The notes under the pieces were generated by a model. That model made no database searches. It was given only the letters and a program-made list of their open reading frames with translations, and was not told the DNA's origin. Of a stretch of DNA of 64,000 nt, positions 47,919 to 53,277 are shown one piece after another (the first letter of the stretch is position 1; each line of letters opens with the position of its first letter). A program made the translations under genes and the position numbers. The stretch lies in assembly GCA_020425085.1 (NCBI GenBank), contig JAGQRW010000007.1, positions 248,001 through 312,000 on the forward strand, read 5' to 3'. The stretch is from Paracoccaceae bacterium. GTDB lineage: Bacteria > Pseudomonadota > Alphaproteobacteria > Rhodobacterales > Rhodobacteraceae.

Positions 47919-48067
47919 AGGCAAAATCCGCTGCGTCGAGGTCGGCTGCATACCTGAAAAATTTGGCTAAAATGTCACACATCGCCTGTTTTACATAACC
48001 CGAGTTCTATACTAGGCTACCCGCATGAGTAGTATGCTCTGGATCAAAACAGCGAATGGCTAATTGC

Positions 48068-48544
48068 ATGAAACAGCATCTGGTTGGTCTTTTTGTACTG
48101 TTGTTCACGATTTTTACCGGTGGTCTGGCTCAGGCCGAAACGGCGCTTACTGTCGGCCCTGCTTCTGGTGGGGCTGAAACAACCTTTACCATAGAAGAGT
48201 TGCTGAAACTCGATCAGGTCGAGATCGTGACGGCGAACGAATTTGTCGATGGCAAGCGGGTGTTTTCCGGCCCGCTGATACGCGACGTGCTCGACATTTC
48301 CCATGCCAATGGTGCGCAACACATACGCATCACCGCCGCCAATGACTATCAAATCGAAATCGACGTGGAAGAGTTTCATAAGTACGATGTCATTCTTGCG
48401 CTCAGCATGGATGGTGTCGCGCTTTCGCGGCGCGACAAGGGGCCGATCTGGCTGATCTATCCGATGAGCGATTTCGTGGAATTGCAGGATCCGGTTTTCA
48501 ACAACCGCCTGATCTGGCAGGTCGTCAAAGTGGAATATTGGTGA
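48068..48544 (+). CDS. Periplasmic SUOX-like (molybdopterin-domain fold) protein lacking cysteine
   Basis: 158 residues: signal peptide (cleavage after LAQA), then a small domain with FTIEELLKLDQVEIVTANEF, VFSGPLIRDVLDI and the ending PIWLIYPMSDFVEL...VVKVEYW. This resembles the oxidoreductase molybdopterin-binding fold but is much shorter and has no Cys in the mature part, so a molybdenum cofactor cannot be bound in the sulfite-oxidase way. The stop overlaps the next kinase gene (GTGA), suggesting a role as its periplasmic sensor partner. An in-frame ATG at 48056 is an alternative start. Confidence 0.75.
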   Translation: MKQHLVGLFVLLFTIFTGGLAQAETALTVGPASGGAETTFTIEELLKLDQVEIVTANEFVDGKRVFSGPLIRDVLDISHANGAQHIRITAANDYQIEIDVEEFHKYDVILALSMDGVALSRRDKGPIWLIYPMSDFVELQDPVFNNRLIWQVVKVEYW

Positions 48545-50235
48545 ACAGATTTTCCAAATTCACCCGCCCCACAGTATTTGCGATCATCATCCTTACCGTT
48601 GCGGTCGCAGCGGTAGGGTTTTTTGTCGTCCGCAGCGATATCGAAAACATGCGCAGGGCAGGGCGGGAAAACCTGTTATGGGATGCCTCGCAGGTCGAGG
48701 TTGAACTGATGCGTCTGCAACGCCTGCTGGCGGATGTGGAACACAACGATCCGAACAGCGCCACGCCCGATCAGGTCAATGATCGGTTCGACATTCTCTG
48801 GAGTCGCGTCGCGCTGTTTCAACAAGGGGCAGTCGGTGCCCGACTGACCGCCTATGATTCCGCCAGCGGAACCGTGGCGCGATTGTTTGCCGCGATGATG
48901 GAGGTGGAGCCTTTGGTGGTTGGCCTGAAGGAAGGCGATCACGAAACCGCACAACAGGTACAGGCAGTGCTGGCACCGTTTTCCCCCGAGTTGCGCAACC
49001 TCATCCGAACGGTTCTGCACGGGGAAGAGGAAATCAATGCCGAGTTGCGGGAAAACCTGTCCAACAGTTCGACCGTATTGACCGCCCTCAGTATCGTTGC
49101 GGTATTTGCCAGTATGCTGATGATCTTCATGTTCGCCCGCGACAGCAACCGTTTTCGTGCGCTGGCAGAAGCAAACGCAAACCTTCTTGCCGCTTCGGAT
49201 CGTGCCAGTCAGGCCAAGTCACAGTTTCTGGCGATGATGAGCCATGAGCTGCGCACGCCGATGAACGGCGTTCTGGGGCATCTGGCGCTGGTCAAGCAGC
49301 GCGGGCTTAGCCCAAACCAGGACCGCCTGATCGAACAGGCCGAACGTTCCGGCCAGCAGATGATCAGCCTTCTGGCTGATATCCTGGATTTCTCGGCGTT
49401 GCAGGATGATCGCCTGAAACTTGAAAGCAAGCCGTTCGACCCGCGTGATCTGGTCGCCGCAGTCGGCGATACGTTCCGCCCTGTAGCATCGCGCGAAGGG
49501 ATCGAGTTCAGCGCCCATGCCAGTGACGATTGCCCATCTCGGGTGATCGGTGATTTTGGCCGTTTGCGCCAGGCGCTGACGCATCTGGCGACCTATCTTC
49601 TGGAAACCGCCGGCACCCGCAATCTTGCGCTGGAGGTCGGGTACAGGGATGGGTGGCTGAATGTGTCGCTGTCCTTTGCCTATAGTCAAAGTGGCGGCGA
49701 GTGGTATCCGGAGCTGATCATGGGTGAAACCCGAGAAGGCTCGGACGTTTTCGCCTCGGAGGCTTTGGGTCCGGCGGTATCGCGCGGGCTGATCAAACGT
49801 ATGGGCGGTTGCACCAAACTGGATACACCTTCGGACGACCGCATCGCCGTTCTGGTTGGCGTTCCCGCAAGGGAACTGGTGCTGGATGTGCTGTTGATCC
49901 GAACCATTTGCCAGTCAAGCGCGCTGGAAGCGATCTGCAAGGCATCGTTCCGGCGCGAGGATATCCGCTTTCTCGATGAAGACAGCACATTGCAGCCGCA
50001 TGTGGTGATGCTGGAAGCGGGCGGCGAGCAGGAGGTTGCGCAGGTTGCCAAGGCGGTCGCTGCCTACCCTGAGGCAATTCTGGTGGCATTGGGTCGGCCC
50101 AGGAACCCTGACGATTTCGATGATATCGTCGACGTTCCGATTGATGTTTCTTATGTGCGCACGGCCGGCTTCATGAACCTGACCAAAGGCATGACAAATG
50201 TTGCCTCGTCAGACAATTTGCGATATGCAAAGTAG
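48541..50235 (+). CDS. Membrane histidine kinase with degenerate ATPase and receiver domains
   Basis: 564 residues from GTG 48541. Two membrane helices (about 12-32 and 180-200) enclose a periplasmic sensor region. HisKA is intact, with FLAMMSHELRTPMNGVLGH near 235. The CA domain is not: the N-box reads RLRQALTHLATYLLETA without the Asn pair, and neither a DxGxG nor a GxGLGL box exists. The C-terminal receiver-like domain has VVMLEAGG, Glu in place of the phospho-Asp. It may thus be phosphorylated in trans by the kinase encoded 17 bp downstream. Confidence 0.88.
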   Translation: MNRFSKFTRPTVFAIIILTVAVAAVGFFVVRSDIENMRRAGRENLLWDASQVEVELMRLQRLLADVEHNDPNSATPDQVNDRFDILWSRVALFQQGAVGARLTAYDSASGTVARLFAAMMEVEPLVVGLKEGDHETAQQVQAVLAPFSPELRNLIRTVLHGEEEINAELRENLSNSSTVLTALSIVAVFASMLMIFMFARDSNRFRALAEANANLLAASDRASQAKSQFLAMMSHELRTPMNGVLGHLALVKQRGLSPNQDRLIEQAERSGQQMISLLADILDFSALQDDRLKLESKPFDPRDLVAAVGDTFRPVASREGIEFSAHASDDCPSRVIGDFGRLRQALTHLATYLLETAGTRNLALEVGYRDGWLNVSLSFAYSQSGGEWYPELIMGETREGSDVFASEALGPAVSRGLIKRMGGCTKLDTPSDDRIAVLVGVPARELVLDVLLIRTICQSSALEAICKASFRREDIRFLDEDSTLQPHVVMLEAGGEQEVAQVAKAVAAYPEAILVALGRPRNPDDFDDIVDVPIDVSYVRTAGFMNLTKGMTNVASSDNLRYAK

Positions 50236-50252
50236 ATAAATGCAACTTTAAG

Positions 50253-51872
<1,620 letters not shown>

Positions 51873-51891
51873 TGACGGACCGGACCAATCG

Positions 51892-53277
51892 ATGAACCCA
51901 CCGCTGCTATTGGTCGAGGATATGCCATCCTTGCAGATGGTATATAAGGCTGTGCTGCAAAAAGCCGGGTTTCAGGTGGAATGCGCCGGCACTGCCGAAG
52001 AAGGTCTGCGATTGTTTCGCGAACTTGATCCCCGGGTGGTGTTGCTTGATCTGATGCTGCCGGATCTGTGTGGTCTGAAGCTGATGGATCAGTTGCTGGC
52101 CATCAACCAGGATGCGCGCGTGATCGTGATCACCGCCAACGGTTCCATCAACAAGGCGGTCGAGGCGATGCGCGCCGGGGCGTTCGAATTTCTGGTAAAA
52201 CCGTTTGATGAGGCACGCCTGATCGGCGTCATCGAAAATGCCGAGATCGAGGTCAGGCCAAGGGCGCAGGCGCTGCCAGCGGTTGAAGGGGTTTCGCGCT
52301 ATCACGGCTTTATCGGTTCGTCACCGAAAATGCGCAAGGTCTACAACAAGATAAATTCGATCAGCGGGTCGATGGCGACGGTGTTCATCTCGGGCGAGAG
52401 CGGCACCGGTAAAGAGGTTTGCGCCCAGGCGGTGCATGATACTTCGATGCGCGCGCGCGGGCCGTTCGTGCCGCTAAATTGTGGTGCAATCCCTTCGGAT
52501 TTGCTGGAATCCGAGGTGTTCGGGCATCTGAAGGGCTCATTCACCGGTGCGATTGGCGACAAGACTGGTGCGGCAGGGGCGGCTGATGGCGGCACGCTGT
52601 TTCTGGATGAAATCTGCGAAATGGATCTGAACCTGCAAACCAAGCTGTTGCGGTTCTTGCAGACATCGACCATCCAACCGGTCGGTTCGGTCACGGCGCG
52701 AAAGGTGAATGTCAGGATCATCTGCGCCACCAACCGCGATCCATATAACGAGGTAAAGGCCGGAAGGTTTCGCGAGGATCTGTTCTACCGCCTGCATGTG
52801 GTGCCGATCCACCTGCCACCGTTGCGCGAACGTGGCGAAGACGTAATCGAAATCGCCGCCAGCCTGTTACAGGAATTCGCGTTGGAGGAAGGACGCGATT
52901 TCAGCGGTCTTTCGCCAGAAGTCGTTCAACTGTTTCGCAAACTGGCATGGCCCGGCAACGTGCGCCAACTGCTGAACGTGCTGCGCAATGTGGTGGTGCT
53001 TAATCCCGGCGGGTTGGTCACCTCGACCATGTTGCCGATGGAGATTTTGCATCTGAGCGAGGAGGATGACCAGGACACTGCGCCCAAGACCTGGACCAAA
53101 ACGGCGGTTGCAGGGCGCGAGTTGAACGGACTGATCGGCCACAGCCTGGCCGAGATCGAACGCCTGGTGATCGAGGAAACCATTGCCCGCAACGACGGTT
53201 CGGTGACAAGGGCAGCGCGCGTGCTGGATGTGTCGCCTTCAACGATCTATCGCAAGCGTGAGGCATGGCAAAACTGA
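51892..53277 (+). CDS. Sigma-54-dependent response regulator (NtrC/LuxO-like)
   Basis: 461 residues. Receiver domain LLLVEDMPSLQMVYKA with phospho-Asp in VVLLDLMLPDLCG (near 53); AAA+ domain with Walker A SGESGTGKE, the sigma-54 contact loop as GSFTGA, Walker B GTLFLDEICEM and arginine finger region; a C-terminal Fis-type HTH (RAARVLDVSPSTIYRKREA). It activates RpoN promoters after phosphorylation. It starts 19 bp after the hybrid kinase. Target genes are not evident here. Confidence 0.93.
   Translation: MNPPLLLVEDMPSLQMVYKAVLQKAGFQVECAGTAEEGLRLFRELDPRVVLLDLMLPDLCGLKLMDQLLAINQDARVIVITANGSINKAVEAMRAGAFEFLVKPFDEARLIGVIENAEIEVRPRAQALPAVEGVSRYHGFIGSSPKMRKVYNKINSISGSMATVFISGESGTGKEVCAQAVHDTSMRARGPFVPLNCGAIPSDLLESEVFGHLKGSFTGAIGDKTGAAGAADGGTLFLDEICEMDLNLQTKLLRFLQTSTIQPVGSVTARKVNVRIICATNRDPYNEVKAGRFREDLFYRLHVVPIHLPPLRERGEDVIEIAASLLQEFALEEGRDFSGLSPEVVQLFRKLAWPGNVRQLLNVLRNVVVLNPGGLVTSTMLPMEILHLSEEDDQDTAPKTWTKTAVAGRELNGLIGHSLAEIERLVIEETIARNDGSVTRAARVLDVSPSTIYRKREAWQN

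What the first reader, a model, noticed from the sequence alone, without database searches (positions are those of the whole stretch)
48068..53277. Four-gene phosphorelay with a pseudokinase/pseudoreceiver membrane sensor paired with an intact soluble hybrid kinase
The membrane kinase (48541-50235) keeps the phosphoacceptor His (MMSHELRTPMN) but has lost both N-box Asn residues and both Gly boxes, and its receiver has Glu where the phospho-Asp should be. The next gene encodes every missing function plus Hpt, without a membrane anchor, and a sigma-54 regulator follows. The simplest reading is that the sensor and the soluble kinase work as a heteromer, the soluble partner phosphorylating in trans. 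I know of no named system with this exact order.
Basis: partly seen in the sequence, partly recalled or inferred. Interest (0 to 1): 0.75.

Follow-up and report, generated by a model that had tools for sequence, protein, structure and literature searches.

The report
Pterin-linked pseudokinase beside a phosphorelay
Four neighbouring bacterial genes look like a signalling chain in which a membrane sensor that seems unable to use ATP, paired with a likely pterin-binding protein, probably restrains a separate working kinase that switches genes on; the parts are of known kinds, but this combination did not turn up in the papers searched.

Summary
Gene B (48541-50235) keeps its phospho-acceptor His, but its ATP-binding domain is degenerate and its receiver-like tail lacks the active site. 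Gene C (50253-51872) is an intact soluble HisKA-HATPase-REC-Hpt kinase. Gene D (51892-53277) is a LuxO-like sigma-54 regulator. So A-B is a known input module whose kinase has died.

All 21 pseudokinases examined fall on one side of a branch (91/88) and keep H-E/D-x-x-T/N; the DHp is their best conserved region. Nineteen lie beside C, 15 of these just after prpE.

Trans-phosphorylation of B by C fits less well than a RetS/GacS-like role: B keeps the motif RetS uses as a phosphatase, and in 4 of the 19 loci C has lost its kinase half while B's H-box is unchanged.

Best reading (inferred): pterin-PruR gates B, and B drains or inhibits C's receiver, which feeds Hpt and D. Nothing was tested biochemically. 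New variant of a known kind; interest 0.5.

The parts
48056..48544 (+). Gene A: PruR-type periplasmic pterin-binding protein (SUOX-like family, signal peptide, no Moco Cys); start may be 48068
   Evidence: PDB pterin-binding proteins 7rkb E 6.5e-20, 7kos E 2.6e-18; Tyr98 Y/F and Trp154 W in 25 of 25 aligned homologues; PF00174 33.3 bits
48541..50235 (+). Gene B: membrane sensor pseudokinase, PruR-linked DTB type (start may be TTG 48538)
   Evidence: hydrophobic segments near aa 12-30 and 179-197, a weaker peak at 435; HisKA only in Pfam; 21-member pseudokinase set
48679..48705 (+). WX7E motif (W47-E55) of the DcpA/DTB periplasmic domain
   Evidence: found in 19 of 21 pseudokinases (not in G248; the G162 piece used lacks the N-terminus); motif from PMC13259868
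49201..49410 (+). DHp domain with H235 (49243-49245), E236, T239
   Evidence: H 21/21, E/D 21/21, T/N 21/21; lowest mean entropy of the regions compared, 1.26 bits over 18 sequences
49411..49869 (+). Degenerate CA (ATP-binding) domain
   Evidence: hhalign 99.0% to C's CA; N, G1, G2 boxes lost
49870..50196 (+). Pseudo-receiver; Glu492 (50014-50016) at phospho-Asp position
   Evidence: hhalign 85.8% to a mixed REC profile, 1.4% to C REC alone; E in 14 of 19
50253..51872 (+). Gene C: soluble HisKA-HATPase-REC-Hpt kinase (H40 at 50370-50372; start uncertain)
   Evidence: Pfam HATPase_c 76.1, Response_reg 79.6 bits; no hydrophobic segment
50679..50999 (+). C HATPase_c with intact N, G1, G2 boxes
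51093..51434 (+). C receiver
51576..51821 (+). C Hpt domain
   Evidence: PF01627 E 2.3e-4, below cut-off
51892..53277 (+). Gene D: LuxO-like NtrC-family sigma-54 response regulator (REC-AAA-Fis HTH)
   Evidence: PDB LuxO 5ep0 E 7.6e-123; NF041946 555.7 bits, cut-off 800; rpoN in genome

Best explanation
A pterin-gated negative input on a LuxO-like phosphorelay. C autophosphorylates and passes the phosphoryl group from His40 to its REC, its Hpt and the receiver of D, which activates sigma-54 promoters. A (PruR) binds a pterin in the periplasm and docks on B's periplasmic WX7E domain. B cannot use ATP. It applies its intact DHp (HExxT) to C's receiver, mainly as a transmitter phosphatase and perhaps also by blocking C, as RetS does to GacS. 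PruR-pterin switches this on or off. Shown here by sequence: domain make-up, loss of B's ATP site, retention and constraint of HExxT, co-occurrence and synteny, family identity of A. Inferred: pterin binding by this A, A-B and B-C contact, phosphatase direction, sign of the signal, D's targets.
For: (1) H, E/D and T/N are kept in 21 of 21 B homologues while the ATP site is lost (second N-box Asn kept only in G054; a DxGxG string only in G146; G2 in none). (2) Mean entropy is 1.26 in the DHp against 2.12 in the CA and 2.32 in the receiver tail, 18 sequences: selection is strongest on the part that in other kinases touches a receiver. (3) C mostly lacks the T/N phosphatase residue (8 of 38; 36 counted by script, G362 and G247 by eye), against 14 of 16 other resolved HisKA proteins of the genome and 21 of 21 B. 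T/N is reported as the one residue required exclusively for phosphatase activity in HisKA proteins (PMC3510030, passages). (4) RetS has a degenerate HATPase, keeps HExxT and dephosphorylates the GacS receiver, and a T428A change abolishes this (PMC5992135, passages); RetS chains rank 4 and 5 of 23 PDB matches to B (6dk8, 6dk7, E 3e-19). (5) B stays where C is only REC-Hpt (4 of 19 linked loci), so C's receiver-Hpt, not its kinase half, is the constant partner. (6) A is PruR-like and B has WX7E.
Against: C's lack of T/N is seen also without B (T/N in 4 of 23), and 4 of 15 C beside B do have T/N, so there is no clean division of labour. The His is said to contribute to, but not be essential for, HisKA phosphatase activity (PMC12632262 section 6), so its invariance may mean phosphotransfer instead. 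C's closest DHp in the genome is B, marginally, which would allow a heterodimer. In kinase-less loci the source of phosphate is unknown, and in three of those four D was not found beside C. No structure or interaction could be modelled (single-sequence model pLDDT 43.5).
Confidence: 0.45

Rival explanations
1. One reading: B and C form a heteromer, C's ATP domain phosphorylates B's His in trans, and B-phosphate feeds C's receiver.
For: C with its kinase half is adjacent in 15 of 19 linked loci; B's His and Glu/Asp are invariant; C's best DHp match in the genome is B (56 vs 51).
Against: 4 of 19 linked loci have no C kinase half and no specific substitute was found, yet B is unchanged; B's best DHp match is another kinase (147).
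Confidence: 0.2
2. B is a ChpT/Spo0B-like histidine phosphotransferase: a DHp bundle with a dead CA that shuttles phosphate between C's receiver (or receivers of other kinases) and another receiver such as D.
For: Invariant His; dead but retained CA fold; would explain loci in which B sits with REC-Hpt only.
Against: C carries its own Hpt in both full-length and short forms, so a second phosphotransferase is redundant. ChpT and Spo0B properties are recalled, not from a call.
Confidence: 0.17
3. B is a DivL-like scaffold that changes C's activity by binding only, without chemistry.
For: Pseudokinase beside a hybrid kinase; DivL (4q20) is a weak sequence match (E 2.5e-8). A laboratory-evolved ChrS pseudokinase promotes phosphotransfer by its partner HrrS without using its own His (PMC9491836, passages).
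Against: H, E/D and T/N are invariant in 21 of 21, hard to explain if only binding matters.
Confidence: 0.13
4. B is a decaying gene with no function.
For: Catalytic sites lost; one relative (G162) has a stop inside B; G101, G015, G211 and G120 fall in the B-associated group of C but have no B there.
Against: Probably one old origin, 21 relatives with a conserved DHp; no stop inside B was reported for the other B relatives listed.
Confidence: 0.03

Closest known systems
PruR-DTB pterin-sensing pairs (review PMC13259868)
   Same: PruR-like periplasmic protein followed by a membrane sensor with WX7E and a TorS-like HisKA-CA-REC layout
   Different: In the review's text that I read, DTB partners are described as sensor kinases; here the CA and REC are dead, and the pair is joined to a soluble kinase and a sigma-54 regulator
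RetS-GacS (Pseudomonas aeruginosa; PMC5992135)
   Same: Sensor with degenerate HATPase and intact HExxT acting on a kinase that carries REC and Hpt
   Different: RetS has two receivers, one a working phosphate sink; B's single receiver lacks the active site, B has a PruR input, C is soluble. That retS and gacS are not neighbours is recalled
Vibrio LuxN/LuxQ-LuxU-LuxO relay (recalled)
   Same: Hybrid kinase to Hpt to LuxO-type sigma-54 regulator
   Different: Hpt is fused to C; D is below the LuxO cut-off; input is PruR-like, not an autoinducer receptor
DivL-CckA-ChpT-CtrA (partly recalled; PMC12189002 passage)
   Same: Pseudokinase beside a hybrid kinase
   Different: B keeps its His; the output here is a sigma-54 regulator
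RcsC-RcsD-RcsB (recalled)
   Same: Two kinase-like proteins, one without kinase activity
   Different: RcsD carries the Hpt itself; here Hpt is on the active kinase

Membership tests
PruR (A) | Sequence relation to solved pterin-binding PruR-type proteins | tested here: met
   7kos E 2.6e-18, 7rkb E 6.5e-20
PruR (A) | No molybdenum-ligating Cys; pterin Trp and Tyr/Phe kept | tested here: met
   Trp154 25/25, Tyr98 Y/F 25/25; window A has no Cys after residue 30; features from PMC13259868
PruR (A) | Binds pterin in vitro | not testable with these tools
   needs protein
DTB-type sensor (B) | Gene follows pruR; DcpA-type periplasmic domain with WX7E | tested here: met
   A-B overlap 4 nt; WX7E at 47-55, 19 of 21 homologues
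DTB-type sensor (B) | Functional histidine kinase domain | tested here: not met
   N, G1, G2 boxes lost; 10 of 10 other PruR-linked kinases examined keep DxGxG
RetS-type pseudokinase phosphatase (B) | Degenerate HATPase with intact HExxT | tested here: met
   definition from PMC5992135
RetS-type pseudokinase phosphatase (B) | Phospho-accepting REC that drains the partner's His | tested here: not met
   Asp replaced by Glu in the window; E 14, D 3, A 1, S 1 of 19
RetS-type pseudokinase phosphatase (B) | Dephosphorylates partner receiver | not testable with these tools
   needs assay
LuxO (D) | NCBIfam LuxO equivalog cut-off 800 bits | tested here: not met
   555.7 bits, though the best NCBIfam match of D
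LuxO (D) | REC-AAA-Fis HTH with sigma-54 contact loop, rpoN in genome | tested here: met
   Pfam; GSFTGA in window D (canonical GAFTGA is recalled); rpoN 362 bits
DivL | Phospho-acceptor His lost (recalled) | tested here: not met
   H235 kept 21/21
ChpT/Spo0B phosphotransferase | DHp with dead CA accepting phosphate from a receiver (recalled) | tested here: inconclusive
   Architecture fits; transfer not testable here

The most novel reading that the evidence does not exclude
A bifunctional sensor kinase has in effect been split between two genes: C supplies kinase and B, gated by periplasmic pterin through PruR, supplies only receiver-directed phosphatase chemistry. In one branch C's kinase half was then lost, leaving loci (for example G004) with a pseudokinase sensor, a REC-Hpt and a sigma-54 regulator but no histidine-kinase ATP domain: a sensor-gated drain fed by kinases encoded elsewhere.
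Probability: 0.3. Interest if true: 0.68.

Novelty: new variant of a known kind. Interest (0 to 1): 0.5.

Why it matters
It would extend PruR-type pterin signalling, worked out for c-di-GMP control in Agrobacterium (PMC13259868), to gene expression through a sigma-54 phosphorelay. It offers a natural series, probably of one origin, in which a sensor lost ATP use but kept HExxT, while its partner kept or lost the kinase half. That makes it directly testable what a histidine pseudokinase is kept for. The four-protein set is small enough to rebuild in a test tube.

Tried and rejected
Structure prediction of B's cytoplasmic part: window sequence alone, mean pLDDT 43.5, not used further and no fold search was run. 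I did not submit relatives, because the tool's list of allowed sources does not name the tools that fetched mine.

The search for related loci in genome contigs with B found only two remote kinases; the genome search replaced it.

Gene A as a molybdenum enzyme: rejected, no Cys and a PruR match. Glu492 as a selected phospho-mimic: weakened, Glu in 14 of 19. Heteromer with trans-phosphorylation: demoted, not excluded. B as decaying gene: rejected on conservation. D as true LuxO: rejected at the curated cut-off.

Sigma-54 sites in the window: 13 with up to 2 mismatches, 15.6 expected by chance, so no target proposed.

Literature. I saw listings (titles and abstract starts; one search showed 20 of 2,625 papers, one search showed 10 of 91, one search found none); no title or abstract start shown names a PruR-linked pseudokinase with a soluble kinase. 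The primary PruR-DTB paper (Greenwich 2024, PNAS) is not held, so it or its supplement could list such loci. Papers opened: PMC13259868 abstract, section 8 and passages; PMC5992135, PMC3510030, PMC9491836, PMC12189002 passages; PMC12632262 abstract and section 6 (68, 71).

Rows dropped before counts: entropy excludes G083, G527b, G162; the C tree excludes G162 and G122 (cut by contig ends) and G054 (its receiver was not found by my pattern); L115 unresolved. Of the 68 genomes with a REC-Hpt match, I fetched the neighbourhood in 44; for the other 24, absence of B rests only on the E<=1e-33 search, which missed the diverged B of G054.
Full report
What is there. Four co-directional genes lie at 48056-53277 between prpE and cdd (these two names are my reading of the ORFs, no family scan was run on them). 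A: 162 aa, signal peptide. B: 564 aa, two membrane segments, HisKA, degenerate CA, receiver-like tail. C: 539 aa, no membrane segment, HisKA-HATPase-REC-Hpt. D: 461 aa, REC-AAA-Fis HTH. Spacing (4 nt overlap, 17 nt, 19 nt) suggests one transcript; this is an inference.

B is a pseudokinase by sequence. Pfam sees only HisKA. The N-box Asn residues are His348 and Tyr352, and the G1 and G2 boxes are gone. Across 21 homologues the second N-box Asn survives only in G054, a DxGxG string only in G146, and the G2 box in none, while 10 of 10 other PruR-linked kinases examined keep DxGxG. In the host genome B is the only one of 18 resolved HisKA proteins (of 19 found) that lacks all three ATP motifs. 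The dead domain still aligns with C's live one (hhalign 99.0%). The tail aligns with a mixed receiver profile (85.8%) but not with C's receiver alone (1.4%), so 'pseudo-receiver' is probable, not proven. Glu at the phospho-Asp place is found in 14 of 19.

B is nevertheless under strong selection, above all in one place. H235, E/D236 and T/N239 are present in 21 of 21; mean column entropy is 1.26 bits in the DHp, 2.12 in the CA and 2.32 in the receiver tail over 18 sequences. A tree of 31 PruR-linked sensors puts all 21 pseudokinases on one side of a branch (91/88, not among the fully supported branches; one change in 90% of 200 bootstrap trees), so the ATP site was probably lost once.

The input looks like a pterin module. 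A matches solved pterin-binding proteins (7rkb, 7kos), lacks the molybdenum Cys and keeps the pterin Trp (25 of 25) and Tyr/Phe (25 of 25). B has the WX7E motif that a 2026 review gives as the mark of PruR partners (19 of 21; PMC13259868). The review calls kinase-type partners DTB; a text search of it found no 'pseudokinase'. PruR homologues are common in the family (96 of 198 genomes at E<=1e-12), so A alone is ordinary. A is beside B in 16 of 19 linked loci; not found at G004, G248, G054.

Distribution. At E<=1e-33 B matched 18 of 394 family genomes; 2 of these (G168, G258) are live kinases and 16 are pseudokinases. G054 was added from its C, and G573, G527, G493 from 390 order genomes, of which 9 matched. 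G527 holds a second pseudokinase away from C, and in G083 pseudokinase and C are unlinked. The other 19 lie next to C. Of these 19, prpE precedes the cluster in 15 (not G146, G265, G248, G054). Of the 17 whose contig reaches past C, D follows in 13 (not G338, G527, G248, G265) and cdd was seen downstream in 10. REC-Hpt of C matched 68 of 394 genomes, including the 17 with B (one of the 68, G311, is a different PruR-linked kinase). In the 26 fetched C loci without B, prpE directly precedes C in 23.

C's kinase half was lost only in the B-associated group. Eight C proteins are REC-Hpt only: G004, G338, G527, G248, G083 (with B, unlinked in G083) and G101, G015, G211 (no B found). In a 43-row tree of REC-Hpt all 17 B-genome rows and all 8 short forms fall in one 21-row group (82/99, moderate support); none of the other 22 rows is short. 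The short form needs four changes and B five on that tree, so events are few and rows are not independent. In G004, G338, G527 and G248 the best match to C's kinase half scores 65-91 bits, against 252 in G169, so no specific replacement was found. A locus of B, REC-Hpt and D without any histidine-kinase ATP domain (G004) cannot work by C phosphorylating B.

Mechanism. RetS is the nearest worked case that I read: degenerate HATPase, intact HExxT, dephosphorylates the GacS receiver, T428 needed (PMC5992135). B has the same set but no live receiver, so RetS's phosphate-sink route seems closed. C mostly lacks T/N at the phosphatase position (8 of 38; 36 counted by script, G362 and G247 by eye), unlike 14 of 16 other resolved host kinases. 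I therefore favour: C phosphorylates D through its own REC and Hpt; B, gated by pterin-PruR, removes phosphate from C's receiver. Against a neat split: C lacks T/N also without B (4 of 23 have it), and 4 of 15 C beside B have it. A phosphotransferase role for B remains open because its His is invariant, and a binding-only role has a precedent in a laboratory ChrS variant (PMC9491836).

Output. D is nearest to LuxO in PDB and NCBIfam, but under the LuxO cut-off. The genome has rpoN. Targets are unknown.

Verdict. Observation confirmed; interpretation partly supported; new variant of a known kind. 

Noticed in passing
L046 (G004), L081 (G338), L092 (G527), L083 (G248): B sits beside a C that is only REC-Hpt; no ATP-binding half in the locus and no specific substitute found in the genome. 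Source of phosphate unexplained.
   Followed up: partly
L041, L043, L044, L078, L093, within 450 nt after prpE: Sigma-54-like sites with at most 2 mismatches in 5 of 15 loci with B and 0 of 16 without B; the window itself has none. Plain shuffles only; could be autoregulation in some relatives.
   Followed up: partly
window 48591-48618: 12-pair stem-loop followed by TTTTTT inside the start of gene B; terminator-like hits in the region are no more than chance overall (3 found, 5.6 in shuffles).
   Followed up: no
L094 (G527), L064 and L129 (G083): Pseudokinase copies without a receiver tail, paired with PruR but not next to C; in G083 the REC-Hpt and D are on another contig.
   Followed up: partly
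L055, L059, L060: C followed by cdd with no full D found beside it in L055 and L059, nor in L060; in L056 D is replaced by a short receiver protein.
   Followed up: no
L138 (G054): Most diverged B: keeps the second N-box Asn but lacks the rest of the ATP site; its C has a longer N-terminus that looks like a PAS domain by eye. Possible intermediate.
   Followed up: partly
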